Shown piece after piece: positions 5,569 to 58,648 of a stretch of 64,000 nt of DNA. Positions within the stretch are counted from its first letter, which is position 1. Every line of letters starts with the position of its first letter. Made by a program: the position numbers and the translations under genes. The stretch lies in the NCBI RefSeq assembly GCF_030253575.1, contig NC_080569.1, forward strand, positions 27,168,501-27,232,500, read 5' to 3'. The notes under the pieces are model-generated. The model was given only the letters and a program-made list of their open reading frames with translations, ran no database searches and was not told the DNA's origin. This DNA is from Rhododendron vialii. Lineage: Eukaryota; Streptophyta; Magnoliopsida; Ericales; Ericaceae.

Positions 5569-6023
5569 TGCATGCACGTTTATCTTAACTTGGCTACTAT
5601 TACCCCGCAGGGCCGGCACGTTTATCAGCCTGAACCAACTGGAGCCAATCGTTGGAGTTGGAGATACATCTCGATCAATCTTTTGCATCCCCTAGTCAAC
5701 AACACTACTGTAGGGTTCAATCATTCAGCCACAAAACAGGAATTCCATATGTGCCCGAAATTCAACATGGATAACTTGCTCTCTCAAATTCTAGCTAGCT
5801 ACCTCAAAAAAGAACTAAACATATTCAGGTATAAATATGTGTATCAAGTAACCAACGAAGCCATCAAGTTAAAAGAACTCATAGAAAAAAGATCACGAAT
5901 ATGGGTGACACCAACATAGCCGACAATTGGCCGGATCTCAGTGGAGATCAAAACTGGAAAGATTTACTGGATCCTCTAGACATCAATCTCCGTCGATACA
6001 TAATTCATTATGGAGAAAGGGTT

Positions 6024-6028
6024 CAAGC
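6024..6028. repeat. Copia target-site duplication, left copy
   Basis: CAAGC here and again at 11808-11812, directly outside the two LTRs. The related gene at 23020-23040 has one uninterrupted copy of this region (GGGTTCAAGTAACCGGCG), confirming the insertion point. Confidence 0.95.
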
Positions 6029-6474
6029 TGTTGAGATTTGGCTTCATTCTCATTTGTCAAAGACTAGCAGTCTTTCTTGACAATGGAAAGATCTGCCCAT
6101 TCTTGTTTGTCAAAGACTAGCAGTCTTTCTTGACAATGGAAAGATCTGCACATTTGCAGAAGATCTCACGCATGGTTTGAAATTAATGCCATAAGCATGG
6201 CTGTTGAACAGGGCTCTATTCTTTGCCTATAAATTGAGCCTTCTGCACTTGTATTTGGTGTGGGAAAATCAGTGAGAGTTTGAGAGCTGCATATGTATGC
6301 ATTTGTATCAGTCTGTGAGTGAGTGTGAGTTAGAGTGATTTGTAATCCTCCTCCTCCTAAATATAATCCGGCTGCCCCCCGTGGATGTACCCGATTTTGG
6401 GGAACCACGTAAATCTTTGTCTCTGTGTTTGTGTGTGTGTTTGTGTTCTGGTTTGGTCCTTAGTTTCCGCAACA
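6029..6474 (+). repeat. 5' LTR of the complete Copia element
   Basis: 446 bp, starting TGTTGAGATT and ending TTTCCGCAACA. A TATAAAT box lies at 6228-6234, so U3 covers roughly the first 230 bp. U3 holds a directly repeated block of about 57 bp (from about 6056 and 6113) centred on the hairpin AAAGACTAGCAGTCTTT; such repeats often act as enhancers in Copia LTRs. A GT-rich run lies near the 3' end. Confidence 0.97.
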
Positions 6475-6476
6475 AT

Positions 6477-6488
6477 TGGTATCAGAGC
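6477..6488 (+). promoter_or_regulatory. Primer-binding site (initiator Met tRNA type)
   Basis: TGGTATCAGAGC, two bases after the 5' LTR, matches the complement of the 3' end of plant initiator methionine tRNA, the usual primer for Copia reverse transcription. Confidence 0.93.
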
Positions 6489-7188
6489 TTGGGAAGCCAA
6501 AACACAAAGCAACATTCTGTTTTTGCCTCTGTTCGAATCTGCGTTTTTTCGAAACAGCTCGAAAATACGATCTAATCTGTCCATCTTGTTCGTCTCGTCG
6601 AGACGATTTCGGGAAGGTATAATAAGCCTTCATCCGACGTCGGGGTGAACCACACCTTCCCGGTCAAAGTTGCGCTTAAGCAGTCAAATCAGAAAATGAA
6701 TCTGACGCGCTTGTGATACGTTTCCACGCGCAACTGCAGGTTGAAGACGATGACATCAGCAAGATGTCATCATCCAGTCAGCAACATGTCATCGCTCCAT
6801 CAGTACCACATGGCGCTGTCATCCGCCACATCACCTGCCCAGTCATCAGACACGTCATCTGCCACGTCACCAAACGGGACCCATATGTGCTGAGTCATCA
6901 ACCACGTCAGCAGTCCGCGTGTCATTCCACGTCAGCGCCAGGTGGGTGCCACGTGTTCGACACCTCAGCAAAAGTGGTCCAGTCAATCATCCAGTCAGCA
7001 GAATTTTCCTAAAATTTGTTTTCTGTGTTTTCGGAGCCGTCCGGACTCCGTTTTTCGCCCGTGAGTAGTCGATTTTGACTATCTCGACGTTCCAGATCCA
7101 ACCCCGTGCCCCGTTTTTCGAGATTCCGTTCCGAAAAATCTGTTGGGAGTATTTTCAGCGGTAAAACTCTCGCTTTTGACTTCGTTGG
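6489..7188 (+). other. Copia untranslated leader
   Basis: About 700 bases between the primer-binding site and the gag-pol start. The part at 6745-6990 is a degenerate array of GTCATC/CGTCA/CCAGTCA words, unlike the rest of the element. Several ATGs precede 7189 but open only short frames. Packaging and dimerisation signals would be expected here, but none can be named from sequence. Confidence 0.7.
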
Positions 7189-10100
7189 ATGTCCAGCATC
7201 GACGAGGAGAGCCCTAGTGTTGTTTCTTCAACACCTATGGACAAATCATCAGATAAGAAGACTTCAGACGAGCCCTCGGTCAGTTCCTACATGAGGAGGA
7301 GCTCGGTTTCGAATGCCAAATTCGAAGTGGATAAGTTCGATGGCACAATTAACTTCGGCATGTGGCAATGCGAAGTTTTGGATATTCTAAATCAACAAGA
7401 TTTGGAATTCACTTTGGAGGATCGTCCTGAGGATATGTCCACCTCCGATTGGGACAAGCTTAATCGGCAAGCTTGTGGCACGATCCGTCTTTGTTTGTCC
7501 AAAGACATCAAGTATTCCGTCATGAGGGACAATTCAGCCAAGGAGTTGTGGCAGAAATTAGAGAGCAAGTACATGACGAAGAGCATAGAGAACAGACTCT
7601 ACCTGAAGAAGAGACTGTATCGTTTTCAGTATCAACAAGGTGCGTCAATGAACGAACATCTAAATAGTTTCAATAAAATTTTGGCCGATTTGCAAAACCT
7701 TGATGTTAAAATTGACGATGAGGATAAGGCACTTTTGTTGATAAATTCTTTGCCTGATACATATGACCACTTGGTTACTACCTTACTGTATGGAAAAGAT
7801 GAAATTCGTTTTAATGACGTTTGCTCTACTTTGATTAACAACGAGGTACGGAAGAAGGATCAACAAGTTCATCGGGATCCCTCTTCATCAGCACTATCAG
7901 TAAGGGGAAGGACTGAATCGAGGAATAGACAGTCCGGGAGGAGACAGTCCAGGTCCAGGTCAAAAGGCAAATCAGCTGAAAGGAATCAGAAATCCGGTGA
8001 TAGGAAGCAGATTGCAAAGGATGAGTGTGCTTACTGTCATGAAATGGGGCACTGGAAGAAGGATTGCCCCAAAATCAAGGAACAACAACAACAACGAGCA
8101 AATGTTGCAAGAGGAGAGGTTGACGACTTGGCATCAGCCTTGATTGTTTCATCAGACACAAATTCAGATGAATGGATTCTGGACTCGGGATGTACCTACC
8201 ATATGTGTCCCCATCGGGACTGGTTCTCAAACTTTCAAGAGATTGACGGTGGCGTAGTTTTGATGGGCAACGACAATGCCTGCAAAACTCAGGGGATAGG
8301 TACAATCCGACTCAAGTTGCGCAACGGTACAACCAAGCTTTTGACAGATGTCCGGTATGTCCCGGATTTGAAGAAAAATTTGATTTCTCTTGGAACCTTG
8401 GATGCAAAAGGTTACAAGATTACTTTAGAAGGTGGAGCTCTGAAAGTAACCCATGGTGCATTAGTGGTCCTGAAAGGCACTCGGAGAGGAAATTTATACT
8501 TCCTCGACGGGCGCACAGTTACAGGAGGAGTAGCCATCTCCAGCAGCAGCTCAGATGATGCTACAGATGACATTTCCCGACTCTGGCACATGCGCCTAGG
8601 TCATGCCGGAGAGAAAGCTTTACAAGGATTGATGAAGAAAGGTCTCCTTAAGGGGGCCAAGACAGGGAAGTTTGGATTCTGTGAGCACTGTGTTCTGGGC
8701 AAACAGACCAGGGTCAAATTTGGCACCGCAGTTCATTGTACGAAGGGTATTCTGGATTATGTTCATTCAGATGTTTGGGGGCCCACAACGACAGCAACTT
8801 TTGGTGGCAAACGGTGGTTTGTCACGTTTATTGATGATTTTTCACGGAGAGTATGGGTTTATCCCATGCAACGCAAGGATGAGGTCCTTGACACTTTCCT
8901 CCGTTGGAAGCAGAGGGTGGAGACTCAGACTGGCAGAAAAATCAAGGTACTTCGGTCAGACAACGGTGGTGAGTATACTTCAGATCCCTTTCTCAAAATC
9001 TGTCAGGAGGAGGGGATAGTCCGACATTTCACCGCAGCGAAGACTCCACAGCAAAATGGAGTTGCAGAGAGGATGAACCGTACTTTGGTGACTAAGGTGC
9101 GGTGTATGTTGTCCAACGCCGGTTTGAGCAAAGTATTTTGGGGAGAGGCAGTCGCCTATGCCTGTCAGTTGATCAACAGGCTACCGTCAGAGGCACTTGG
9201 CGGACGGACTCCCATGGAGGTATATTTTGGTCAATCTTCGATTGATTACGATCGGCTGCATGTATTTGGTTGTCCTGCTTATTTTCATGTCACAGAATCT
9301 AAGCTGGATCCTCGAGCTAGGAAGGCTATATTTGTTGGCTTTACTCCAGGTGTAAAGGCCTATAGACTCTGGTGCCCGGAGTCTAAGAAGATTATTACCA
9401 GCCGAGATGTTACTTTCGATGAGTCGGCCATGCTTCAAACCAACTCTCGAAAGGTTAACACCATTCCAGGGTGTTCAGATCAGGTGGAGCAGTCAGAGCA
9501 GGTGGAGCTAGAGGTTCCTGTAGTTCAAGTTCCTACCATTTCGCCACCACAGGAGCACCACAGTGATGTTTCAAATTCAAGTTCTGAGTCTGATGATGTT
9601 TCAGTTCCCGAGGCTATAGCGCCAACACAGTCTATTGCTACTAGCCGTCCGAGGAGGGAGATTCGAAAACCTGCCCGATATGATGGTATGGTTGCATACG
9701 CCCTTCCGGTTATCACAGGTGTTCCGAATACGTATAGGGAGGCCGTTTCAGGTTCTGACAGTTCTCAATGGAAGCAGGCTATGAATGAGGAGATGAGTTC
9801 TCTTCACAAGAATAAGACTTGGGAGCTGGTACCACTTCCCAAAGGGAATAAAGCAATAGGATGCAAATGGGTCTACGCCAACAAAGAGGACAGTTCGGTC
9901 AAGGGTGGTGTTAGACATAAGGCCAGATTGGTGGCAAAGGGTTATGCTCAGCGCGAAGGGATTGACTACAATGAGGTCTTCTCTCCGGTGGTGAAGCATG
10001 CATCGATCCGCATTCTATTATCTTTGGTTGCGCAGTACGACCTCGAGTTACAGCAACTCGATGTTAAGACTGCATTTTTGCACGGCGACTTGGACGAAGA

Positions 10101-11307
10101 GATCTATATGTCACAACCAGATGGTTTCAAGGTCTCCGGAAAGGAAAATTGGGCTTGCCGTCTTCGCAAGTCACTATATGGCCTAAAGCAGTCGCCACGA
10201 CAATGGTACAAGAGATTTGATCAGTTTATGGCTACGCAGAGGTATACTCGCAGCAGTTTTGACCATTGTGTTTACTTTCGTAAACTTCGGGATGGTTCCT
10301 TTATCTATTTGCTCTTATATGTTGATGATATGCTAATTGCATCTAAGAGCAAGGTGGAGATTTCTCGGTTGAAGGCACAACTGAGTTCAGAATTCGAAAT
10401 GAAAGACCTTGGAGAAGCAAAGAAGGTCATTGGGATGGAGATTCAGCGCAACAGGAAGCAGGGCACAGTTTGCTTATCGCAGACTCAGTATCTGAAGACT
10501 GTACTTCAACGGTTTGGCATAGATGGCAAAGCTAAACCCGTGAGTACACCATTAGCCCCGCACTTTAAGCTCAGCGCTTCGATGTCACCTCGTACTGATG
10601 CGGAACGAAAACAGATGGCCCAAGTTCTGTATGCCAACGCTGTGGGATCCTTGATGTATGCAATGGTATGTACCAGACCCGATATTTCACACGCTGTCAG
10701 TATGGTTAGCAGATATATGCATGATCCAGGAAAGGGTCACTGGCAGGCTGTGAAATGGATTCTTAGATACATTCAGGGCACAGTTAATGTTGGCCTAAAA
10801 TTTGGGAGAGATCAGAAATTTGGTGATCAGCTTGCAGTTGGTTATGTAGATTCAGATTACGCTGGTGATCTGGATAAGAGGCGGTCAATTACTGGTTATG
10901 TTTTCACTATGGCAGGAGGACCAGTTAGTTGGCATTCGACTTTACAGTCCACGGTTGCACTATCTACTACGGAGGCTGAATATATGGCTGTGACTGAGGC
11001 CATAAAAGAAGCCATCTGGTTGCAGGGTTTGATTGGTGATTTGGGTGCCAAACAGGAGCACATCAATGTCTATTGCGATAGTCAGAGTGCCATTCATTTG
11101 GCAAAGAATCAGGTGCACCATACCAGGACAAAGCATATAGATGTCCGTTTTCACTTTGTTCGGGAAATTCTAGAAGAAGGGGACATATTGCTTGAGAAGA
11201 TTGCCACTGCAGACAACCCAGCTGATATGTTGACGAAGGTTGTTACTGGGATCAAGTTCAATCATTGTTTGGACTTGATCAACATCTCTCCGGTTCAGAG
11301 CGCCTAA
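7189..11307 (+). CDS. Copia gag-pol polyprotein, intact, 1372 aa
   Basis: A single uninterrupted frame. In order: a Copia-type Gag domain (about residues 44-220); a basic Arg/Ser-rich stretch (about 235-275); a CCHC zinc knuckle (Cys280, Cys283, His288, Cys293); an aspartic protease with DSG at 332-334; the pre-integrase His-Cys finger; integrase with Asp528, Asp591 and Glu627 in D-D-35-E spacing; a reverse transcriptase with YVDD at 1044-1047; and RNase H from about 1218 (Asp1221 in VDSD). The integrase-before-polymerase order defines Copia. No stop, frameshift or catalytic change is visible, so activity is plausible. The first ATG with full coding continuity was taken as the start; a downstream Met within the first 40 residues cannot be excluded. 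Confidence 0.97.
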
Positions 11308-11350
11308 GGGCGCATTGGGGGCAGCATCGGACCTTTGGAGAATTGTCGCC

Positions 11351-11361
11351 AAGGTGGAGAT
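11351..11361 (+). promoter_or_regulatory. Polypurine tract of the complete Copia element
   Basis: AAGGTGGAGA followed by T directly abuts the 3' LTR, the position where plus-strand synthesis is primed. It lies 43 bases after the gag-pol stop. Confidence 0.8.
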
Positions 11362-11807
11362 TGTTGAGATTTGGCTTCATTCTCATTTGTCAAAGACTAG
11401 CAGTCTTTCTTGACAATGGAAAGATCTGCCCATTCTTGTTTGTCAAAGACTAGCAGTCTTTCTTGACAATGGAAAGATCTGCACATTTGCAGAAGATCTC
11501 ACGCATGGTTTGAAATTAATGCCATAAGCATGGCTGTTGAACAGGGCTCTATTCTTTGCCTATAAATTGAGCCTTCTGCACTTGTATTTGGTGTGGGAAA
11601 ATCAGTGAGAGTTTGAGAGCTGCATATGTATGCATTTGTATCAGTCTGTGAGTGAGTGTGAGTTAGAGTGATTTGTAATCCTCCTCCTCCTAAATATAAT
11701 CCGGCTGCCCCCCGTGGATGTACCCGATTTTGGGGAACCACGTAAATCTTTGTCTCTGTGTTTGTGTGTGTGTTTGTGTTCTGGTTTGGTCCTTAGTTTC
11801 CGCAACA
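11362..11807 (+). repeat. 3' LTR of the complete Copia element
   Basis: 446 bp, the same as the 5' LTR as far as I can read. Its TATA box (TATAAAT) lies at 11561-11567, so a transcript starting here would run straight into the rest of the phospholipase exon. An ATG at 11718 is in frame with that exon (see findings). Confidence 0.97.
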
Positions 11808-12449
11808 CAAGCAACCGGCGACGCCTTCAACTCTGAAAAGGTGTCGAAGAATGCAGGAAGTTGCCGGTACGCAAAGAAGGATCTCTTTGCTAAGGTGTTT
11901 TTAGAGCAAGGCAATCCATTCAAGTACCGCGTGACCAAATATCTCTACGCGACATCCTCATTAATCCCTGTTCCCATTGCATGGTTCAAGGAGACCAATT
12001 GGATGGGGTACGTAGCGGTGGCCACGGATGAGGGGAAGGTGGCTCTGGGGAGGAGAGATATTTTGGTTGCTTGGAGAGGGACAATAGAGGCCTTGGAATG
12101 GCTAGATGACTCAGCATGTACTTTGGTTCCGGCTTCGAACATAATCGTAAATCAGAAGCATGATCCAAAGGTGCATGCGGGGTTTTACTCCATCTACACT
12201 ACTGATAATCCAAGTTCACCATTCAATGATAAATCCAGCGCCAGAGACCAGGTAATATAATATATTTCATTTGTCCCAAATTTTTTGATCTTTTTCGATA
12301 ATCGTGCCATCTTTTAAACTCTTATAATCCAAGTTCACCATTCAATGATGGTTAATTAAGGCTTCTTTTAAGGCAAATAAGAGAGTGGTTATATTAATTG
12401 ATTTAGTAATAATTTTTTACTATTAAGAAGTACTATCTTAATTCTTTAG

Positions 12450-13269
12450 TTTTTTTTTTTTTTTATTTATTATAAGCCAATCAACTTCATTTCATTACAA
12501 AGTGCCCATCGGGCAAATATAGGAATCCACCAAAAATACAGAGATACAAGCTAAATATGAACATCAGGTAGGAACCTAAACTCTACTACTGAGAAATAAG
12601 CACATACTGCAAAGCAGAGACGATACACAAAGTTCGACCAATAGAGCTGTTCACCGAAATAGAGATTAAACACCTATGGGAACGGAACCTAATCACTGAA
12701 TAAGCAAGAAAACAGGGAATCCCTTTTTCATCAAACCAATCTTAACCCCGAAAATAGGCACCAAAGCAAGAAGACCATAATCAACCCACCATCGTCGGAC
12801 AATGCTCAATAGGCGCCGGATTATTTCCCCACCATCCCTTCCACACCGGATCTAAAAAATCAAACTGGTACCTACTCCGAACTGGGGAGACCAGGCGGGA
12901 AACCCAGAAAAACCGGTAAAAACAGAAAAAACAAGAAGAAAAAAAAATCCTAACTCCATCACACCATTATTACCTCGCCGCCAGCCACTTATTGTCGGAT
13001 TTGAGAAGACAAGGCAGGGTTCGGTCAAGTCAAGCCCACAAAACACCGACCGGAGGTCCAATCATCCGAAGCTTTGTTGCCTGAAACACACCAACACTCA
13101 CCGTACTAGACCGGAGAGAGTAGATACACCGGAGGGTTGAGAGAGATTGGAGGAGGGGAAAGGGAGAGGAGGGTGGAGGGGGCGGCGGCCCCCCTCCCCA
13201 GATCTGAAATCTGTGGGTTTGGTTTTTAGAGAGAGAAAGTAGAGAGAAGGAGGAGCGTGATCTATCAAA
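12450..13269 (-). mobile_element. Non-LTR retroposon in the phospholipase intron, 820 bp
   Basis: It begins with a run of T (12450-12465), the poly(A) tail of a minus-strand insert. It is bounded by an 11-bp target duplication, TAATTCTTTAG (12439-12449 and 13270-13280). Read on the minus strand, a pyrimidine- and GC-rich 5' part leads to an AT-rich 3' end with AATAAATAAA before the tail. There is no reverse transcriptase frame, so it is a truncated or non-autonomous LINE or a long SINE-like element. The intron of the unit 2 copy (25753-26127, 375 bp) lacks it. Confidence 0.85.
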
Positions 13270-13345
13270 TAATTCTTTAGTGAATAAGTGAAATTTGCAT
13301 AAATAGATTGGGTACCAATGTGGCTACGCACTTGAGGCACCTTTG

Positions 13346-13445
13346 ATTATAGCCACATCCCCAAGGGATATTAATTTTGGCACTCTCCTTTGAAAGTACT
13401 TATCAATTTGGAAAGTGCCAAAATCACTCCCCTAAGGAAATTGAT
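13346..13445. repeat. Short inverted-repeat relic in the intron
   Basis: TTTTGGCACTCTCCTTT and GGAAAGTGCCAAAATCACTCCCCT form an imperfect hairpin. A similar motif (AGTGGCAAAATCACTCCCCT) lies at about 45798-45817, so this is probably a MITE relic. Confidence 0.45.
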
Positions 13446-14169
13446 ATATATATTTCAATACCATTTTCCACTTCAAGAATAAAATTTCGAAACAAAAGTT
13501 CCGTCATGATTAAAAATGGGAATATTGTCCTTCTAGGTTAACGCTGAGATCAAAAGGCTCGTGGAAGAATACAAGGACGAAGTCATCAGCATAACCGTTG
13601 TTGGCCACAGCTTGGGAGCAGCGATCGCAACCCTAAACGCAGTTGACATAGTTGCCAATGGACTGAACATATATCAAGGTCAACCAAACAAGGCCATTCC
13701 AGTAACAGCCTTCGTGTTAGCAAGCCCTAGGGTTGGAGATTCTGGCTTCAAAAAGGTGTTCGTTGGACTCAATCATCTCCGAATCCTACGCATTCGCAAT
13801 GACAGGGATATGGTTCCAGATTTACCTCTTACTTTACCTCCTTTGTTTGATTACGCTGAAGTAGGCGAACAATTGAAAATTGACACGACGAAATCCGAGT
13901 ACTTGAAAAGTCACTGGGTTAGAGGGAGTCCAACTCTGCATAATTTGGAGGCGTATTTGCATGGAGTTGCGGGAACACAAGGCTCGGAAGGAGGATTTCA
14001 CTTGGAAGTTGATCGCTCTTACGCCCTTGTTAACAAGTCGTTGGATGGTTTGAAAGACGAATATGGCATACCCGTATCATGGTGGCAAGTGCAGAACAAG
14101 GGAATGGTTCAAGATGCAGATGGGTCTTGGGAGTTGAAGGATCGCGAGGAAGACGACGATGATTTCTAA

Positions 14170-21196: not shown

Positions 21197-21800
21197 AAAA
21201 GAAGATTTGTGTGTATGTGTGTGTGTGTATTATTGTTCTCTTAATTTATTTAGTTATTGTTCAAGCATGGATTGTTGTGCCCCAAGGATCAAAACCAAAA
21301 AACGCCAAACACACATAAATACAGAATTTTATGTAATTTTTCAAAATCGGGTACATACATGGAAAAATCAGAGCAATATTTTTATATGAAGACAAACTTT
21401 AGAAGAGAGTTCCCTCTCAACCAACTACACACTCACACTCTCTAATTTCTACATTAATTGCTAGTCCTACTTAAAACCATACAAATGCAGGCCATAAATA
21501 GGCAGATCAAAAGCTCCTATCGCACTGCATGAACGTTTATCATCCTGAACCAACAGGAGCCAATCGTACGAGATACATCTCAATCTTTTGCATCCCCTAG
21601 TCAACACTAGAGGCCTAGCTTCAATCATTCAGCCACAAAACATGAATTCCATACGTGGAAATTCAACATGGATAACTTGCTCTCACAAATTCTAGCTAGC
21701 TCAAAAAAGAACTAAACATATTCAGGCCGTATAAATATGTGTATCAAGTAACCAACGAAGCCATCAAGTTAAAAGAACTCAGAGAAAAAAGAACACGAAT
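21197..21800. other. 5' flank and leader of phospholipase copy 2
   Basis: From about 21485 this aligns with 5285-5900 of unit 1 without the MITE at 5332. It includes the TATA-like GGCCATAAATAGG (about 21491). Before 21485 lies unassigned sequence. No other gene is present. Confidence 0.6.
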
Positions 21801-21899
21801 ATGGGCGATACCAACATAGCCGAAAATTGGGAGCTTCTCAGTGGAGAACAAAACTAGAAAGGATTACTGGATCTTCTAGACATCGATCTCCGTCGATAC

Positions 21900-23000
21900 T
21901 GTTGGTCCAAATAGCAACCCAAGAAGGGGGTGACTTGGGTATCTCAAATATAACGTGGAATTTAAAAAACTAATTGACTAATTATTCAAGATATTCTACC
22001 ACACAACTCATTATTCAATAATATATCAATTTACTCATGCGATATAGATATGCAAAACTGAAAGTAAAGAGAGTAGGGAAGAGAGAATCGAACGCAAGGA
22101 TTTATAGTGGTTCGGTCCGCAACTTCACGGCCTAATCCACTCCCCAAGTGTCCAACTCAGGATTTGCTACACTATCTCCAATAGTTACAATCCTTCTAGC
22201 TTCGCGGGTGCTAGACAACCTTTACAACGAGCAATCTATCCCCAATCACTCTGACTAATTTTGACTCCGGTGGTAGTCACACCTAACCCAACTAGTTTTG
22301 ACTCCGGTGCTAGTAACACCTAACTCTCAAGTGATTTTCTCTCCAAAATCACTCACAAAAAGATTAACTCTCACAAGAGTATGAATAAGGGTGTACAATC
22401 CCTTTTACAACAAGGTTCAAGAAACAACACTCAAGCTAGTCTAGATATTCAAGATGTAAGCATAGAGTTTGATAGAGATTTGCAATTGAAAAGCTCACTG
22501 AATTATTTCTCCGGAGATCTCTTTTATTGTCTTCATTCTTCTACTGTATTTATTCTTGGAGAATAAGACTTCAGACATGTGGAAGCTCCACTAGCCGTTA
22601 GAATATTGAACTCCAATCCTTTTCTTTTCCAAACGTTTGCATCTTCCATCTTGAGCAACATCAACTACAATCAAGCCTTCAATTTGCCGAAATAATATAA
22701 AGCTCCAAGTAGCATTCAATTGTCCTCCTTGATTAATATTTGCTTTCCATAGAAGTCCTCATAGCCAATCACAAATTAGGAGAAAATTTGTCCTTAATCT
22801 TCTTCCTTCTAATTTCAATCTTGACTATTAGAGATAGGAGTTTTGATGTAGAGTCTTTCCTTGTGTAACTCAATCAAGTCCTACAAAATAAATATTATTC
22901 AAATCAATAGCAAATAATATTAATTGTATTTCTCTTCAATAAAATTTACTTTGTTATCATCAAAATCAATAAAGTTTTCATAGAAATCTTTGGGCTAACA
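21900..23000. mobile_element. Solo LTR, Copia-like, 1101 bp
   Basis: It starts TGTTGGTCC, ends GGGCTAACA, and is flanked by GATAC on both sides (21895-21899 and 23001-23005). Copy 1 of the gene supplies the empty site (CGTCGATACATAATTC at about 5992). No internal region or second LTR remains. The TGTTRG...CTAACA ends and 1.1-kb size suit a SIRE-like Copia LTR; that lineage is inferred. Confidence 0.92.
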
Positions 23001-23307
23001 GATACATAATTCACTATGGAGAAAGGGTTCAAGTAACCGGCGACGCCTTCAACTCTGAAAAGGTGTCGAAGAACACAGGAAGTTGCCGGTACGCAAAGAA
23101 GGATCTCTTTGCTAAAGTATTTCTAGAGCAAGGCAATCCGTTCAAGTACAGCGTGACCAAATATTTCTATGCGACATCCTCATTCCCTGTTGTTGATCCA
23201 TAGATCGAGGAGTCCAATTGGATGGGGTACGTAGCGGTGGCCACGGACGAGGGGAAGGCGGCTCTGGGGAGGAGAGATATTTTGGTTGCTTGGAGAGGGA
23301 CGATCAA

Positions 23308-25590
23308 TGTCACGCTTCGTCCCGGAATGACACCCGAAGTGAGCCCGAACCGACACGACCACGTGGCATTCCACACCAAAGAACAAAATCTAAACGATAA
23401 ACCATGCACATAACAGAGTAAAACCCCAGCGGAAGACTTAACTTTAACATAAACAATGTGTCAACAATTTTACAAACTTACATAATACATAAGTTGCTGT
23501 CTCTTATCCCAACATAAGTAATTAAAACATTAACAGAGTTTCCCACATAATTAAAAACTTGAAATCATAAAGTACTTAACAATCTTAGTCACAAAATGAG
23601 TTTAACAAAAATTAGAGTTTGACTCATTACAATCAACTCGACCCAAAAATACCAACACTTGATACTAATCCAAGTGTCTCCAAAATGCCGACCAGTAGTG
23701 GACCAACTCTACGACCACCGGTGACCTGGCAATCCAAAAAGAAAAACCAGAGTGTGTGAGATATAGAATACATTCAATAAAATACCACAGAGCCTGAAGG
23801 AATATCTCACTTGAATGTAAACCACACAAAACTCAACATAAGTACTCAATCGTATAACCACATGTGTAAATACCAACATACAGTGGCACGTCTGCCACAT
23901 TCCATGTACCTAAGGTATTGTGTCCTGCACACCACACTCCCATTCACCGTTAATTAGACAGCATGGCCCACGATATGGTGTGACTCACTCCACAATTCTT
24001 TAGCGAGTACAATCAACACCCAACAAACATATATCATTAACTAAATCCCAATTAGCATGATATACAATCACCACCATGTAATACTTTATTGAACATAACC
24101 ATATTAAACACACTCACCTTTGTGTCGACCGAAGTATGCCAAACTAAGGTTTCGGCACCTCCCGAATGACCGGCTCTTTACCTAGCCACAAGTTAACTCA
24201 TATTAGTTACTAATTCAATGAATACTTGGCATAATGTTATAAAGCTAATAAGAAGCTAAACAATGTCTAACGGATACAAATATGTCCAAGTCCATATCTA
24301 AAAGTATCTCACGATAAGTGTGAAACTCAAACACTTCCCAATTCTCCAAAAAGACAACATATTCCACAACCAATCTGTCTTAGAATGATCATAACATTTA
24401 ATAGGTTTAGAACTAGTTCATGAGACCACCACCATTAGAAAGTACACTTCGTACATGAATTTTGATATAAAGTTTGCCCAACATAGTGTCCGGACGACAA
24501 AGTTATGCTTGTCCGAAGTTATTCACACAACTGTCCAAGATTACAGATTTTGCACGTCCACCAACTTCAAACCAAAAACTGATTTAACCTAAAACAAAAC
24601 AAGCCACAAACCCTACATATTCAGAAAGGCATACGAGTCTAGTTTCCAAATCAAAAATTGGTGCGCAAACTCGATACCCGAACTAAAAGATATGACTGTT
24701 TTTTCCAAGACATGTCGGAGCCACAAATACAAAATCCAGCAGGATCACACCAACTTGTAAATTCCGCCAAACTTAGAATATGCATCTAATAAACCCCAAA
24801 TTTGGTACACACCATTATCACTCATCAAAGTTCATTCCTGATTTTTCCTTGATTTTTCACAACAAAGGAACCTAGTCAAAATCACCCCCGAACTCAGAAA
24901 TTCTGAGCAGAGCAACACAATTTCAGGCAGAACAGTTTGTGTTCGAAAATTCATAAAAAATCGAATACTTAATACTTTTTAGTAATTCCAAAGCCAAAAC
25001 ATCATCAATTTATCAATCTTTCAAACCCAAAAGGACCCATAATCAAGAGAATCATTTATCCATAAAAAAATTGATGAAAGACGCAGCTCTGTAAGCTGTC
25101 TGCTCAAAAACAGGAATTCTACCACAGTTTGGTTTATGATTTTTATCTTTTTTCATATTTCTCAGAAAATTCTGAAAATTTAACACAATATAATAGACAC
25201 ACTATTAAACCCTTAGTAAAAATACCAAAAATTAACAAGTTTTCTAGATACATTGAATAATTTCGTGAAGAACAAACTAGGGTTTTTCTTCTCTTTCTCT
25301 TCTCCGCTTTTTCTTCTCCTCTTTCCAACCGTCTCGTCTCTCTCTCTCTCTCTCTCTCTCTATACACGTACACGTAAGAGAGAAGAATGGGGAGAAATAT
25401 CTCCTCAGGATACTTGTAAACCTATATAAAGATTATCATGTGCAAGCGAGACCTATTGTTAACTTATGTTCTAATAGCAAATCACCTATAAGACCCTCGC
25501 AAGTTCTATTGTTTACGGTTTTTAACCCCCAAAACATATAATTCAATTAAAAGTAATTGAAATACCGAAATATCCGGAGCGGGTATTACA
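23308..25590 (-). mobile_element. Solo LTR, probably Gypsy, 2283 bp
   Basis: It starts TGTCACGCTTCG, ends GGGTATTACA, and is flanked by ATCAA (23303-23307 and 25591-25595). The uninterrupted coding sequence is seen in copy 1 at about 12087. On the minus strand it begins TGTAATACCCGC and ends GCGTGACA, resembling the ends of the LTR at 27614 (TGTAAATCC...GGGACGTGACA), so the two are probably related Gypsy LTRs in opposite orientations. A (TC)n run lies at 25337-25360. Confidence 0.92.
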
Positions 25591-26760
25591 ATCAAGCTCT
25601 TGGAATGGATAGATGACGCACAAGTTAATTTGGGATCTGCTTCAGAAATACTTGGGAAGGAACATGATCCAAAGGTGCATGAGGGGTTTTACTCCATCTA
25701 CACTACTGATAATCCAAGTTCACCATTCAATGATAAGAGCACCAGAGACCAAGTAATATAATATAAATTTTTATGCAAAGTTTGAAATAGAGGTGATAAA
25801 TGGGCGGATTTGAACGGATTAAAACGGGTTGTGGGTTGAATATGGGCGGGGTAAATACGGGTCAAGAGTAGGTGGGTTGAAATTGGTTGGGTTGAACATG
25901 AGTTAAGCCATACCCAAACCCGCCCTGCCCCTTTCGATCTTCTCTCCCCTTTTTGCATCTTGATTTTCTCAATTTTGAACACATGATCAACATAATAGTT
26001 TCAGGAAATTGATCTTTGTGTATAACTTTATGTTTCAATACCATTTTCCAGTACTTCGAGATCGAATAAAATTTTGAAACAAAAGTTCCATCATGATAAA
26101 AAAATGGCCTTGGGAATGTCCTTTCAGGTTAACGATGAGATCAAGAGGCTTGTGGAAGAATACAAGGACGAAGACATCAGCATAACTGTAGCTGGCCACA
26201 GTTTGGGAGCAGCACTTGCAACCCTAAACGCAGTTGACATAGTTGCCAATGGAGTGAACAAATATCAAGGTCAACCAAACAAGGCCTTTCCAGTAACAGC
26301 CTTCGTGCTTGCAAGCCCCAGGGTTGGAGATTCTGGCTTCAAAAAGGTGTTTGATGGACTCGATCGTCTCCGGATCCTACGCGTTCGCAATGCCAGAGAT
26401 AGTGTTCCAGATTTACCTCTTACTTTACCTCCTTTGTTTGATTACGCGGAAGTAGGCGAAGAATTGAAAATTGACACGACGAAATCCGAGTATTTGAGAA
26501 TTCACTGGGTTAGAGGGAGTCCAACTCTGCATAATTTGGAGGCGTATTTGCATGGAGTCGCGGGAACACAAGGCTCGGAAGGAGGATTTCACTTGGAAGT
26601 TGATCGCTCTTACGCTCTTGTTAACAAGTCGTTGGATGGTTTGAAAGACGAATATGGCATACCCGTATCATGGTGGCAAGTGCAGAACAAGGGAATGGTT
26701 CATGATGCAGATGGGTCTTGGGAGTTGAAGGATCGCGAGGAAGATGACGACGATTTCTAA

Positions 26761-46685: not shown

Positions 46686-48065
46686 TCATTCTAACAGGCC
46701 GTGCAATTTCTGAATCAAACTGTCAATGTAAGAACTATCACGGTTTTTACTCGACAACAGCTCCCTCCACTTAGCATTATTGGCTCTCACCTTTTTCCCA
46801 ATTTCACCATCAACTTCCATTACCAACCTAATTGCCTTGGACACACTTTCTCTGCTAAAAAACTCCTCTCCCTCTTCTCTCTCCACCTCAACTCCCACCT
46901 CCGAATCTCCGCTCACAAACCTCGAATTGACGATTTTCTCCCCGTTCATTGGCATTAACACCAATTCGCACTCATTCACCATAGCCTCCGATAAGGAACC
47001 AGAACCACAGTGTGTCACGTAGCACCCTACGGAAGTGTGTCCCATGATCAACTGTTGTTGTACCCAGCCCCCATAAACAACCCCTCTTCCTTTAGTCCTC
47101 TCGGAGAACCCTCCCGGTAATGAATCCTCAATCTTTTCCAACCCAAGTGGCGGTTTCAGGGCAGCGAGAAACGGCATGCCGGTTAGCTCCAAACCAAGCA
47201 GGAGTTCTTCAAACTGTTCCTTCCCAAGTACACACTCGCTTCCGAATGAACAGAAAATCACTTCTTTGGCTTCGAAACTATTAAGCCACTTAGCCCATCG
47301 TTCTTCTAGCGTAGAAGCGGGTGCTGAGTCCGGAATGACCGGGCCTGCAAGAATAACCGGCCTCCCGAAATGTTTTTCGATGTAATCACTATAATGCCCT
47401 GCAATCTCTTTACAAGCATTGAAACTGATGGCATCACACTCACTGTAGGAACTCAAAATGCGTTGCGCAAAGCGTATTCCGGAACCAAATTCCTTTTCTA
47501 CCAGTTCATTGACTAAGGCACGGGCTTCTTGTGAACTCATTTTAATGGAGGAAGCAGGGAAATCAGGGGGCGGTTTCGTAAAATCATCCGGCGTGACTTT
47601 CTCGTGGAATTTTCTAGCAGGGCTAAAAAGGTAAGCTACGGTTGAAGGGCTAACAATGGAATAGCGTACGGACTTGATGCCTAAACGGCGTGCGAGAGTT
47701 GGTATCCAATGAGCCAAATCGTAGAACACGAAGTCGGGTTTGAGTTGTTCCAGAGAAGCTTCAATTGTGGGTTGTGTGAGATCCATGGCAGTCATGAGCC
47801 GAGGTTGTAATGCATAAGAAGCAATATCGTTGGTCGTTTCGGCGCCCTGAGGGAGCCCGTCGACGTGCGGAACGGTGAACGGGATGAAGGTGATGAGGTC
47901 TGGGTGAAGATTGAGGTGTTCCAACTTTGTTATTGTGTTGGTTGGGACGAAGAAGTGGATTTTGTGGCCTCTCTGAGCAAGCCTATTGGAGATATGGAGA
48001 AAGGGGATTAGGTGACCCATGGCTAACCATGGGAAGGTAGCTACCTCAAATGTTTTCTCAGCCAT
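46686..48065 (-). CDS. UGT79-like glycosyltransferase, 459 aa, Lys at PSPG end
   Basis: A single intronless frame on the minus strand, full length for family 1 plant UGTs. These move a sugar from a UDP-sugar to small acceptors; the UGT79 group typically extends sugar chains on flavonoid or terpenoid glycosides. The catalytic His is His18 (AMGH) and the partner Asp is Asp116 (FVFYD). The PSPG sugar-donor box runs from Trp334 to Lys377. It keeps WVQQQLI, THCGSGS and the Glu in NECELVLMP, but the last two positions are Glu-Lys where Asp/Glu-Gln is usual, and His344 is present. The start ATG lies about 50 bases after a TATATAA box on the same strand (about 48115-48122). The neighbour at 57260 is a divergent relative with a normal box. 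The acceptor cannot be told from sequence. Confidence 0.93.
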   Translation of the reverse strand: MAEKTFEVATFPWLAMGHLIPFLHISNRLAQRGHKIHFFVPTNTITKLEHLNLHPDLITFIPFTVPHVDGLPQGAETTNDIASYALQPRLMTAMDLTQPTIEASLEQLKPDFVFYDLAHWIPTLARRLGIKSVRYSIVSPSTVAYLFSPARKFHEKVTPDDFTKPPPDFPASSIKMSSQEARALVNELVEKEFGSGIRFAQRILSSYSECDAISFNACKEIAGHYSDYIEKHFGRPVILAGPVIPDSAPASTLEERWAKWLNSFEAKEVIFCSFGSECVLGKEQFEELLLGLELTGMPFLAALKPPLGLEKIEDSLPGGFSERTKGRGVVYGGWVQQQLIMGHTSVGCYVTHCGSGSLSEAMVNECELVLMPMNGEKIVNSRFVSGDSEVGVEVEREEGEEFFSRESVSKAIRLVMEVDGEIGKKVRANNAKWRELLSSKNRDSSYIDSLIQKLHGLLE

Positions 48066-48111
48066 ATGTGTTGCTGCTGTTGTTGCTCAGAGAAATACAC
48101 AGCTTAATTTT

Positions 48112-52111: not shown

Positions 52112-55100
52112 CTTTTCTCCTTCTGGTTGCCAGGTGCAGGATCCACATACAGGGCAGACAGTTGGGATAGGGCGTAGGACAGGACGCCTTTTTGAGCTCA
52201 TCAGTCTTCACCTTCCGCATCGCTTTACTTCTCCAGTTTAGTCCACAGCTTTTGCTTCTTTCATCTCGTCTTTGAGTCTATGGCACTCCTGTTTGGGGCA
52301 TGTGTCGGTTAGTCGTTTACGTTCTTTAGTATCTAGTGGTCAGTTAGGATCTGTGAGAAACACCAATATTGATTGTTTACCTTGTCAACTTGCTAAACAA
52401 CCTGCTTTACCTTTCAATAATTCAGATTCTATTTCCTCAGCACCTTTTGACTTGGTTCATTTTGACATTTGGGGACCTTCTTCCAATGCCACCATGGGGG
52501 GCTCCAAATACTTTGTCATATTTGTTGATGATTATTCGCGCTTTACTTGGATATATCTATTTCACAAACGATCTGAGTTACCAAAAATTTATGTTGACTT
52601 TGCGAACATGGTGAAAACTCAATTCTCTTGCTCTATAAAAGTTTTTCGTTCTGACAATGCTATGGAATATAGAGAAACCAATTTTCTCAACTTTCTCCGT
52701 CAGAATGGTACTCTCCCACATAGATCTTGTCCAGGTACATCCCAGCAAAACGGTCGTGCTGAACGTAAACACCGCCACATTCTAGACACAGTTCGTGCTC
52801 TTCTTATCTCAGCCTCGTGTCCTGAATATTTTTGGGGAGAAGCAGCTCTCACAGCTGTATATACCATCAATCGCATTCCATCCCCAGTCATCGACAATAT
52901 GACACCTTATGAACGGTTGTATGGTATCTCTCCCAATTATGACCATCTTCGAGTTTTCGGATGTGCATGCTTTGTGTTACTTCAACCTCGTGAACATACC
53001 AAGTTAGAGCCTAGAGCACGTCTTTGTTGTTTCATAGGTTATGGAATTGAACATAAAGGTTATCGCTGTTGGGATCCCATTTCTCGTTGTCTTCGCATAT
53101 CCCGTCATGTTATTTTTTGGGAACACAAAATCTTTTCTTCTCTCTAAATTTCACTTACGCACCACTGACGTCAACTCTCTTTTTTTTACTGACTCGTCCA
53201 TTGAGTTATTCCCTGATGAGCTTGATACAGGTTCTCTCCATACGTCTTCTCCGCAGCCTATCCTAGATGCCTCTGTTCTGCCTGCTGATTCTGCACCTGC
53301 ATCTTCTGGCTTCTCCCTCCCGGAGCCTTCCGAGTCATCTCCTAATAATGATGTCACTATTCTTCCACCTCTCCGTCGTTCTGATAGGGTAAGGGAAATA
53401 CCTATTCATCTTCGTGATTACCATTGTTTTTCCACTATCCTTTCACATTATGAACCACACTATTATCGTGAAGCTAGTACTAACCCTCTTTGGCAACAAG
53501 CAATGACAGACGAGCTGCTGGGTTTGACTAATACTCAAACATGGGATTTGGTTGATCTTCCCCCAGGCAAAACTCCCATTGGCTCCAAATGGGTGTACAA
53601 AATTAAGACCCGCTCTGATGGCTCTGTTGAACGGTACAAAGCCTGCTTGGTGGCAAAGGGGTTTAACCAAGAATATGGCATTGACTATGAGGAGACTTTC
53701 GCTCCAGTTGCTCGTCTTACCTCTATTCGGAGTCTAATTGCCGTTGCTGCTGTCCATAAATGGCAACTTTATCAGATGAATGTCAAAAATGCCTTCCTCA
53801 ATGGTGATCTTGTTGAGAAAGTGTATATGAAGCCCCCTCCTGGGTACACTCATCCTCCAAACAAGGTCTGTAAGCTTCGTCGTGCCCTCTATGGCCTCAA
53901 ACAAGCTCCTCGAGCATGGTTCGCCAAGTTCAGCACTACAATTCAGACATTCGGATTTTCATCTAGTCCACATGATTCTGCCTTGTTTATTCGCAAATCT
54001 AAGCATGGTACTGTTTTCCTTCTCCTATACGTTGATGACATGATAATTACTGGGGATGATAGTATTGGTATCACTGAACTCAAGAATCTCCTCAGCTAGC
54101 TTTTCGAAATGAAGGATTTGGGTTTTCTAAGCTACTTTTTGGGCCTTGAAATCTCTTCGGATCCCTCTGGCTATTATCTCTCACAAGCCAAATATGCCTC
54201 TGACCTTCTCTCTCGTGCTGGCCTCACTGATTGCAAGACTGCCTCAAATCCTCTGGAGCCCAATGTTCGCCTTACTCCTCTAGATGGTACTCTACTTTCG
54301 GATGCCACCCTATATCGTCAATTGGTTGGCAGTCTTGTTTATCTCACAGTTACTCGACTGGACATAGCTTATGCTGTTTATCTTGTTAGCTAATTTTTAT
54401 CATCCCCACGAACGACCCATTACGATGCTCTACTTCGTATTCTTCGCTATGTTAAAGGGACTTTGTTTTATGGTCTCCACTACGCTGCTCATTCATTCTT
54501 AGAGCTGCGAGCTTACTCTGATGCAGATTGAGCTGGAGATCCTACCGATCGTCGTTCTATCACAGGCTATTGTTTCTTTCTTGGTGATTCCCTCATCTCT
54601 TGGTGCAGTAAGAAACAAACTGTTGTTTCTCGATCAAGTACTAAAGCTGAATACCGTGCTTTGGCAGATACCACCCAAGAACTCCTATGGCTGCGATGGC
54701 TACTTACCGATATGGGTGTTCACCATTCCACTGGTACTACCCTTTGTTGTGACAACCAGAGTGCCATCCAAATTGCTCGCAATGATGTCTTTCATGATCG
54801 CACCAAGCACATCGAGATTGACTGTCACTTTGTGCGTCAACATGTTGCTAGCGGCGCTCTTCATCTTCTATCAGTGTCGTCATCTGATCAGACTGCTGAT
54901 ATTTTCACCAAGGCGCACCCTCCTGGGCGTTTTCATGACTTAGTTTCCAAACTCAAGTTGGTCTCTACTTTACCACATTGAGTTTGAGGGGGGATGTTAG
55001 AATATTCTAGATCATATGATCAAATCATGTATTATCAAATCATATATTATTATGATTTTATATGATATTGATTTTATATGATTGCGATTGTGATTGTGAT

Positions 55101-57051: not shown

Positions 57052-57259
57052 CTATTCATGTATGAGTGTTTGATGATGAATTTGCTGGTGTAATTTGGTA
57101 CCAAGTTCCTTCTAACACCCCTTTCATTCTTAATTTTGTGTTCCTTGTTGATATAAGCACGGAAGGATCTTTTATATTAGGAGGCTAATACAAGAAGTGA
57201 GGCCTTAACCTTGCCTAAAAAAGCCTCCAAAATTTGATCTTCTATCGGAGGTTCCACGT

Positions 57260-58648
57260 ATGTCAAAGACAACCCTTCAGGTGGCTATGCTCCCATGGTT
57301 TGCCATGGGGCACATAATCCCATATATCAATATCTCCAACAAGCTTGCCCAGAGAGGCCATAGGATTTTTTTCATCATGCCCATAAATACAATACCCAAG
57401 ATTGATCATTTGAATCTTCACCCAGACCTCATCACCTTTGTTCCAGTCACTGTTCCACGTGTCGGTGGCCTCCCTCATGGTGCTGAAACAACCGCAGATG
57501 TTTCGTCTGAGTTGCATCCTCTTATCATCACTGCGATGGATCTTACACAACCCTCCATTGAAGCTGCTCTGAAACATCTCAAACCCGACTTTGTATTCTT
57601 TGATTCGGCTCACTGGATACCAGCCTTGGCTCGCCGTTTGGACATTAAGTCTATACATTATTCTGTTGTAAGCCCTGCAGTTGTGGCTTACCTGTTTGGC
57701 TCGGAAAGAAAACTCCATGAAAAACAGTGGTCGCAATCTGAATTGATGAAACAGCCACCGGGTTACCCTGCTTCATCCATTAAGTTACGTTCATATGAAG
57801 CTCGTGCCATGGTTGGTCTGGGAGTAAACGAATTTGGTGGTGGAATAACCTTTGTGGAACGTCTTTCTATCTCCCTCAGTGATTGTGATGCCATCAGTCG
57901 CAAAACTTGTATGGAAATTGAAGGGCCTTTCTGTGATTACATTGAAACACAGTTCAAAAAGACAGTTATTTTGGCAGGCCCGGTAGTGCCGGATCCACCA
58001 CTCGCTGCAACCTTGGAAGAAAGATGGGAAAAGTGGCTGGGAAGTTTTGAACCCAAAACAGTGATTTTCTGTTCATTTGGAAGCGAGTGTATACTAGGGA
58101 AGGAGCAGTTTCAAGATCTGGTTCTGGGTTTGGAGCTCAGTGGTATGCCATTCTTTGCTGCCCTAAAACCACCTCTAGGGGTGGAAAAGATCGAGCACTC
58201 ATTGCCGGTAGGGTTTTTAGAGAGAACTCAAGGAAGAGGGATAGTTTATGGAGGTTGGGTCCAACAACAACTAATTTTGGCACACCCTTCTGTGGGGTGC
58301 ATTGTGACACACTGTGGTTATGGTTCGTTATTGGAGGCTATGATAACTGAGTGTGAATTGGTGTTAATGCCGCAATATGGTGATCAATTTATCAATTCGA
58401 GATTGATGGGCGGAGATTTGGAGGTTGGAGTGGAGATCAAGACAGACGAGGAAGACGGGTCGTTTACCAGTGAAGGTGTAAGCAAGGCAATAAGATTGGT
58501 GATGGAGGTTGATAGTGAAGTTGGGAAGAAGGTAAGAGCCAACCGTGCTAAATTGAGTGAGTTCCTGTCGAGGAAAAGCCTTGATAGCTCTTACATTGAT
58601 AGTTTCATTCAGAAACTGCAAGGACTTTTAGGATTGACATCAATTTGA
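57260..58648 (+). CDS. UGT79-like glycosyltransferase, 462 aa
   Basis: One intronless frame. The catalytic His is His18 (AMGH) and the acidic partner is Asp115 (FVFFD). The PSPG box runs from Trp333 to Gln376 and has the regular Asp375-Gln376 end, His342 and THCGYGS, consistent with use of a UDP-sugar such as UDP-glucose. It resembles the minus-strand neighbour at 46686 over its whole length but is clearly diverged, so the pair is an older duplication in head-to-head arrangement. Expected work: adding a sugar to a flavonoid or other glycoside, as in the UGT79 group; the real acceptor is unknown. No clear TATA box was found in the 200 bp before the start. A relic of a further UGT 3' end follows at 58755. 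Confidence 0.95.
   Translation: MSKTTLQVAMLPWFAMGHIIPYINISNKLAQRGHRIFFIMPINTIPKIDHLNLHPDLITFVPVTVPRVGGLPHGAETTADVSSELHPLIITAMDLTQPSIEAALKHLKPDFVFFDSAHWIPALARRLDIKSIHYSVVSPAVVAYLFGSERKLHEKQWSQSELMKQPPGYPASSIKLRSYEARAMVGLGVNEFGGGITFVERLSISLSDCDAISRKTCMEIEGPFCDYIETQFKKTVILAGPVVPDPPLAATLEERWEKWLGSFEPKTVIFCSFGSECILGKEQFQDLVLGLELSGMPFFAALKPPLGVEKIEHSLPVGFLERTQGRGIVYGGWVQQQLILAHPSVGCIVTHCGYGSLLEAMITECELVLMPQYGDQFINSRLMGGDLEVGVEIKTDEEDGSFTSEGVSKAIRLVMEVDSEVGKKVRANRAKLSEFLSRKSLDSSYIDSFIQKLQGLLGLTSI

What the first reader, a model, noticed from the sequence alone, without database searches (positions are those of the whole stretch)
11561..14169. LTR-driven chimeric phospholipase with a microsatellite-encoded hydrophobic leader
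The 3' LTR has its own TATA box (11561) and an ATG at 11718 that reads through the LTR end, in frame across the target duplication, into all the remaining phospholipase coding sequence. The new N-terminus ([12 protein letters not shown], then alternating Cys-Val from the GT run, then LVWSLVSA) is hydrophobic and ends like a signal-peptide cleavage site. A cytosolic lipase could thereby become a secreted or membrane-inserted one lacking its first 43 residues. Two short upstream ATGs in the LTR (about 11625 and 11629) would lower translation.
Basis: partly seen in the sequence, partly recalled or inferred. Interest (0 to 1): 0.75.

Follow-up and report, generated by a model that had tools for sequence, protein, structure and literature searches.

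The report
Young retrotransposon breaking a plant lipase
A very recent copia retrotransposon has landed inside a plant phospholipase gene; by a one-in-three frame coincidence its end could start a shortened enzyme with a greasy new front, but nothing yet shows that this protein is made.

Summary
The DNA is essentially as described. A Ty1/copia element (446-bp LTRs, identical; CAAGC target duplication) sits in exon 1 of a class-3 lipase gene of the plant phospholipase A1-II type. From ATG 11718 in the 3' LTR a frame runs into the rest of the gene: 30 LTR codons plus 358 lipase codons, catalytic triad kept. Corrections: 41 residues are lost, not 43 (the duplication regenerates Gln42-Ala43); the upstream ATGs are at 11626 and 11630; the "microsatellite" is U5 sequence shared across this LTR family.

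The fusion looks like a by-product. The start codon is ATG in 11 of 40 best-matching LTR copies, otherwise ACG (28) or ACA (1); one of three insertion phases gives an ATG-led open frame; the five other 3' or solo LTRs with this ATG run 0-25 codons further. The start context is weak and a segment shared with the solved plant enzymes is lost. The leader scores like a signal peptide on a crude matrix, but so do 61% of its shuffles. The gene was under purifying selection before it was hit, so recent gene loss is likeliest, perhaps with occasional LTR-started transcripts. Transcription, translation and secretion are untested. A known kind of event; low interest.

The parts
5901..6028 (+). lipase exon 1, first part (codons 1-42 plus two bases); native frame now runs into the 5' LTR and stops after 59 aa
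   Evidence: phmmer to 7x0d/2yij/7x0c
6024..6028 (+). target-site duplication CAAGC, left copy
6029..6474 (+). 5' LTR of the copia element, 446 bp
6475..6488 (+). primer-binding-site-like stretch ATTGGTATCAGAGC (complementary to the 3' end of initiator tRNA-Met; recalled)
   Evidence: sequence; the tRNA assignment is from memory
7180..11307 (+). single open gag-pol frame of the element (stop to stop); gag, integrase and RT pieces match Pfam families
   Evidence: three pieces searched apart
11362..11807 (+). 3' LTR of the copia element, 446 bp, identical to the 5' LTR
11561..11567 (+). TATA-box-like TATAAAT in the 3' LTR
11626..11655 (+). upstream ORF 1 (9 codons and stop)
11630..11671 (+). upstream ORF 2 (13 codons and stop)
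11718..11807 (+). LTR-encoded leader, 30 codons, from the ATG to the LTR end
11808..11812 (+). target-site duplication CAAGC, right copy; re-encodes Gln42 and part of Ala43
11813..12251 (+). lipase exon 1, remaining part
12252..13536 (+). lipase intron (GT...AG)
   Evidence: same position as the introns of paralogues L045, L046, L047 and L049
12439..13281 (-). dispersed poly(A)-tailed repeat inside the intron, flanked by 12-bp direct repeats TAATTCTTTAGT
13537..14169 (+). lipase exon 2 with the GHSLG serine, aspartate and histidine positions and the C-terminal region
21801..26760 (+). sister lipase copy B, broken by stop codons and inserts

Best explanation
A young Ty1/copia element with an open gag-pol frame inserted, in sense orientation, into exon 1 of a duplicated phospholipase A1-II gene that had until then been under purifying selection. 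The insertion breaks the native protein: a transcript from the native promoter would now encode 59 aa (42 whole lipase codons, then LTR codons and a stop). The 3' LTR carries the same sequence as the promoter-bearing 5' LTR, and its U5 has an ATG followed by an open frame that happens to be in phase with the lipase, so a transcript starting in the 3' LTR could encode a 388-aa protein: a hydrophobic 30-residue leader plus lipase residues 42-399. I think the usual outcome is loss of gene function. LTR-started, 5'-truncated transcripts may appear when the element is active (stress, loss of methylation), but a stable, secreted, active lipase is unlikely. Shown: insertion, target duplication, LTR identity, frame, family of the gene, prior constraint, that the ATG is carried by other copies of the element. 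Inferred: promoter activity, translation, targeting, folding.
For: Identical 446-bp LTRs and matching CAAGC duplication. Gag, rve and RVT_2 domains in integrase-before-RT order. Near-identical LTR pairs elsewhere on C12 and C13. Lipase exons match plant PLA1 structures 2yij, 7x0c and 7x0d. Purifying selection before the hit: polarised with L045, 14 synonymous and 14 non-synonymous changes on this copy's branch, 78% non-synonymous expected from site counts, binomial P = 0.0012 with no transition correction; dN/dS 0.36-0.38 to four paralogues. The start codon is ATG in 11 of 40 LTR copies, ACG in 28 and ACA in 1 (the 40 are best-scoring copies of 697 candidates, not all copies). Six ATG-class LTRs are not followed by the primer-binding site; the five outside this gene run 25, 11, 10, 6 and 0 codons past the LTR. 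LTR-started 5'-truncated transcripts are reported for ONSEN insertions in Arabidopsis (PMC8501995, passages).
Against: The frame is open over the whole 388 codons and the catalytic residues remain, which an active fusion would need. The leader is strongly hydrophobic (Kyte-Doolittle 11-residue maximum 3.5), the matrix score is high, and the charge difference across the hydrophobic stretch (-2) favours the signal-peptide orientation by a rule I recall. An insertion this young would show no decay even if nothing were made, so an intact frame neither supports nor refutes function. With L046 as outgroup the exon-2 branch counts are only 4 synonymous and 5 non-synonymous. [quoted passage not shown]
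Confidence: 0.75

Rival explanations
1. One reading: the 3' LTR drives a translated chimera whose leader acts as a signal peptide or membrane anchor, so a cytosolic lipase becomes a secreted or ER-bound one.
For: TATA box, open frame and kept triad; matrix score 7.5 at VSA|TQ versus -6.0 for the native N-terminus, and charge difference -2; one N-glycosylation sequon, NKS at residue 344; precedents for LTR-started transcripts or products: blood-orange Ruby (PMC3520747, one passage), mouse DicerO (PMC8069103, passages).
Against: 3065 of 5000 shuffled leaders also pass the threshold; no Lys or Arg before the hydrophobic stretch; poor start context and two upstream ORFs; transcripts must pass the element's own poly(A) region, which lies close to the TATA box in the two plant Pseudoviridae clades modelled in PMC3601003 (Retrofit and Sire; passages; not mapped for this element); loss of an N-terminal segment shared with the solved enzymes.
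Confidence: 0.06
2. LTR-started transcripts occur but yield no stable lipase: they are degraded, or translated only into short upstream peptides or a misfolded fusion. The effect is regulatory or nil. (This is compatible with the best explanation as a milder form of it.)
For: LTR-containing transcripts truncated in 5' in 6 (control) and 78 (heat) cases, of 35 and 139 genes with LTR sequence in transcripts, in the ONSEN study (PMC8501995); two upstream ORFs and the poor start context.
Against: No transcript data here.
Confidence: 0.3
3. The whole element is spliced out, or the insertion is heterozygous or polymorphic, so that full-length lipase is still made.
For: Identical LTRs fit a very recent, possibly unfixed insertion; a seemingly spliced-through exon-1 ONSEN insertion in AGO5 is reported (PMC8501995).
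Against: The exon-2 and exon-1 searches of the held assembly gave this copy once, with the insert; no spliced product or second haplotype could be looked for.
Confidence: 0.12

Closest known systems
Copia-like element at Ruby in blood orange (PMC3520747, one passage read)
   Same: A copia-like element whose 3' LTR contributes a transcription start and gives a chimeric LTR/gene transcript.
   Different: There the insertion is in the 5' UTR and the coding sequence is not split; here it splits codon 43 and any product would be N-terminally replaced. Transcription is shown there, not here.
Mouse oocyte DicerO from an intronic MTC LTR (PMC8069103, passages read)
   Same: An LTR promoter and first exon give an N-terminally truncated host protein.
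   Different: There the LTR is intronic, the isoform is proven and has a function; here the insertion is exonic and no product is known.
ONSEN insertions in Arabidopsis genes (PMC8501995, passages read; ONSEN as a copia element is recalled)
   Same: Recent insertions, mainly in exons, with transcription starting in the LTR and 5'-truncated gene transcripts.
   Different: Measured by transcriptomics there; here sequence only.
Plant phospholipases A1 of solved structure: 2yij, 7x0c (A1-IIgamma; taken to be AtDSEL, with Ser236, Asp302, His339 aligning) and 7x0d (taken to be CaPLA1)
   Same: Same lipase family by sequence over both exons, GHSLG, triad positions and C-terminal region (PMC9000616, abstract and passages).
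   Different: This copy lacks about 10 residues present in the cluster paralogues and in 7x0d, and is split by the element.

Membership tests
Ty1/copia LTR retrotransposon | paired LTRs with TG...CA ends and a target-site duplication | tested here: met
   446-bp identical LTRs, TGTTGAG...CGCAACA, CAAGC duplication
Ty1/copia LTR retrotransposon | copia-type gag and integrase upstream of reverse transcriptase | tested here: met
   PF14223, then PF00665, then PF07727 in three separate pieces
Plant class-3 lipase, phospholipase A1-II type | Lipase_3 domain, GXSXG, Ser/Asp/His | tested here: met
   PF01764 in both exons; GHSLG and the Asp and His aligned to the triad of 2yij
Plant class-3 lipase, phospholipase A1-II type | intact N-terminal segment in one reading frame | tested here: not met
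   split by the element after codon 42
LTR-promoted chimeric gene | open frame from the LTR into host coding sequence | tested here: met
   388-aa frame
LTR-promoted chimeric gene | transcript starting in the LTR | not testable with these tools
   no RNA data available
Secretory signal peptide | hydrophobic core and (-3,-1) small residues | tested here: inconclusive
Secretory signal peptide | positive n-region (usual, not obligatory; recalled) | tested here: not met
   [10 protein letters not shown] has no Lys or Arg
Secretory signal peptide | entry into the ER in vivo | not testable with these tools
   no localisation experiment

The most novel reading that the evidence does not exclude
The U5 of these copia copies, after one ACG-to-ATG change, is a portable start-codon-plus-signal-peptide cassette: in one insertion phase of three, a sense insertion into an exon could turn a cytosolic protein into an N-truncated secreted or ER-bound one, and this lipase would be the first captured case.
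Probability: 0.05. Interest if true: 0.6.

Novelty: new member of a known kind. Interest (0 to 1): 0.22.

Why it matters
If the fusion were expressed it would show how a retrotransposon can, in one step, replace a promoter, remove a protein's front and change its destination, because the GT-rich U5 reads as alternating hydrophobic Cys-Val codons. If not, it is still a clean, datable example of a constrained plant gene broken by a retrotransposon, beside a sister copy already dead.

Tried and rejected
Rejected: private microsatellite slippage as the origin of the leader; the GT run is shared (30 of 40 copies by a strict pattern). Rejected: an RNA hairpin at the start codon as a special feature; single-sequence folding of 11690-11760 was no better than shuffles (z = 0.49; 137 of 200 shuffles fold at least as well), and I did not run the covariation test. 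Tried without result: tRNA scan (0 genes) and Rfam scan (0 matches at gathering score). Paper searches for an LTR- or TE-derived signal peptide on a host protein (listings of 5, 15 of 30, and 5 papers) showed none that I recognised from titles and abstract starts; I read none of those papers, and the library is open-access only, so this is no claim that nothing is in print. A further search listed one paper, not read. A search bearing on the species did not settle it; 13 contigs and 532.6 Mb suggest Rhododendron, an inference from recalled chromosome number only. One LTR row (83-base partial, C4:35553137) was dropped from the 40-copy counts, and itself scored 40 of 697 candidates. Eight of the 16 exon-2 rows (L037-L044) were not analysed further. 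Of the six paralogue loci fetched, L048 gave exon 2 only and L050 was left out of the dN/dS as too distant. An earlier count said the ATG occurs only in copies at least 99.5% alike; one search replaces that (11 copies, down to 97.7%). No structure prediction was run: the spliced protein is not letter-for-letter in the window.

Full report
What is there. The window lies in a genome of 532.6 Mb in 13 contigs (window = C13:27168501-27232500), a plant by its genes. A Ty1/copia element occupies 6029-11807. Its LTRs (6029-6474 and 11362-11807) are identical over 446 bp and flanked by CAAGC on both sides. Gag, integrase and RT pieces match Pfam families in copia order, within one open frame 7180-11307. 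The element lies in sense orientation inside exon 1 of a lipase gene: 5901-6028, then 11813-12251, an intron 12252-13536, and exon 2 at 13537-14169. With the flanks joined, the gene reads 399 codons without a stop. Both exons match the solved plant phospholipases A1 2yij, 7x0c and 7x0d, and the 42 codons cut off upstream match the same three. [quoted passage not shown] that these entries are those proteins is my inference from the titles and the aligned triad. AtDSEL is called cytosolic in the title of a reference cited there (seen in its reference list).

The chimeric frame. ATG 11718 opens a frame of 30 LTR codons, then lipase residues 42-399, 388 aa in all. Exon-2 residues Ser25, Asp91 and the His of TLHNLE align with Ser236, Asp302 and His339 of 2yij (alignment; triad named in PMC9000616). 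Two short upstream ORFs begin at 11626 and 11630 and close before 11718. The start context is CCGTGG-ATG-TAC, with neither a purine at -3 nor G at +4, the usual favourable bases (recalled). A native-promoter transcript would now encode 59 aa.

Where the leader comes from. I compared 40 LTR copies from this genome: the two in the window and 38 of the other 39 places (one 83-base fragment was dropped; one search scored only 40 of 697 candidates, so these are best matches, not all copies). The homologous codon is ATG in 11, ACG in 28 and ACA in 1. The 11 are the copies most like the window's LTR (97.7-100% over the matched part), so ATG looks like a derived C-to-T change in a CpG. The GT run is widely shared: a strict (GT)5 pattern fits 30 of 40; by eye 8 of the rest differ by single substitutions in the run or its anchors and 2 are rearranged. 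[quoted passage not shown] its remark that U5 begins with such a stretch concerns the animal Zam group, not plant copia). The leader is therefore a property of the element and was not shaped at the lipase. Of the three possible phases at the LTR end, one has an ATG-led open frame. Of the 11 ATG copies, 5 are followed by the primer-binding site and 6 are not (3' or solo LTRs); past the LTR end these 6 run 150 codons of exon 1 here and 25, 11, 10, 6 and 0 codons elsewhere (possible splicing into genes further downstream was not examined).

Is the leader a signal peptide? However, 3065 of 5000 shuffles of the leader pass 3.5, with 331 reaching the observed value. There is no Lys or Arg before the hydrophobic stretch, though the flank charge difference (-2) favours the signal-peptide orientation (rule recalled). 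The test is inconclusive; a modern predictor was not available.

What the insertion hit. The exon-2 search found 16 places: this copy (A), a sister at 21801-26760 (B) with in-frame stops and large inserts, a cluster of five at C13:28.01-28.04 Mb, and nine more distant ones. In the cluster, L045 and L047 are open from an ATG to a stop over both exons (L047's stop comes one codon before the position of A's last residue in the alignment); L046 is open but has TCG, and L049 ACG, at the homologous first codon (other starts not sought), L049 also ends differently; L048 has a stop in exon 2 and gave no exon-1 match. dN/dS of A to the four cluster copies with both exons is 0.36-0.38, against 0.27-0.38 among them. 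Polarised with L045, the A branch has 8 synonymous and 7 non-synonymous changes in exon 2 and 6 and 7 in part of exon 1; 14 of 28 non-synonymous against 78% expected gives P = 0.0012. With L046 the exon-2 count is 4 and 5. B shows 19 of 31 non-synonymous (P = 0.029), so it too seems to have been constrained before it died. There was no transition correction, which would weaken these P values, and only one outgroup at a time. A also lacks about 10 residues present in the four cluster copies, as does B, so it was not standard even before the hit.

Age. With 0 differences in 446 bp, a 95% upper bound of about 3/446 at 1.3e-8 per site per year (my arithmetic; rate recalled) is under about 0.3 million years. 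Gene conversion between LTRs would make it look younger.

How it most likely works. Gene loss by exonic insertion, with an accidental in-phase frame. If the element is transcribed, some RNA may start in the 3' LTR and enter the gene, as reported for ONSEN (PMC8501995, passages), Ruby (PMC3520747, one passage) and DicerO (PMC8069103, passages). A stable secreted lipase needs, in addition, escape from the LTR's own poly(A) region, initiation at a poor ATG behind two upstream ORFs, translocation, and folding without an N-terminal segment that its relatives share. Each is possible; together I give about 6%.

Verdict. New member of a known kind; interest 0.22.

Noticed in passing
window 12439-13281: The lipase intron holds an ~820-bp dispersed repeat, poly(A)-tailed on the minus strand, with 12-bp direct repeats TAATTCTTTAGT; the genome search gave 48 matching pieces including this one (40 of 150 candidates scored).
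   Followed up: partly
window 21801-26760: Sister lipase copy B is broken by an in-frame TAG at codon 19, a second stop, and two inserts of about 1.1 and 2.3 kb, while its exon 2 stays open and 92% identical to copy A.
   Followed up: partly
window 6385-6648: In the 5' LTR the same ATG opens an 87-codon frame across U5 and the primer-binding site, so the ATG-bearing copies have a long upstream ORF in their own leader; it is 87 codons also in L007 and L008 but 49 in L004.
   Followed up: partly
window 21284-21362: Weak (70%, E = 0.007) antisense match to the LTR U5 about 440 bp upstream of lipase B's ATG, perhaps the end of an older related LTR.
   Followed up: no
C13:28009727-28043119 (L031-L035, L045-L049): A cluster of five further lipase copies about 0.85 Mb away, two with stops in the exon-2 match and two without ATG at the homologous first codon: the family seems to be gaining and losing members.
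   Followed up: partly
window 46686-48086 (-) and 57209-58648 (+): Two long open frames of 466 and 479 aa that look alike and look like plant UDP-glycosyltransferases (by eye and recalled, not searched).
   Followed up: no
window 52242-54981: Fragments of another copia-type pol region in several frames (by eye, not searched).
   Followed up: no
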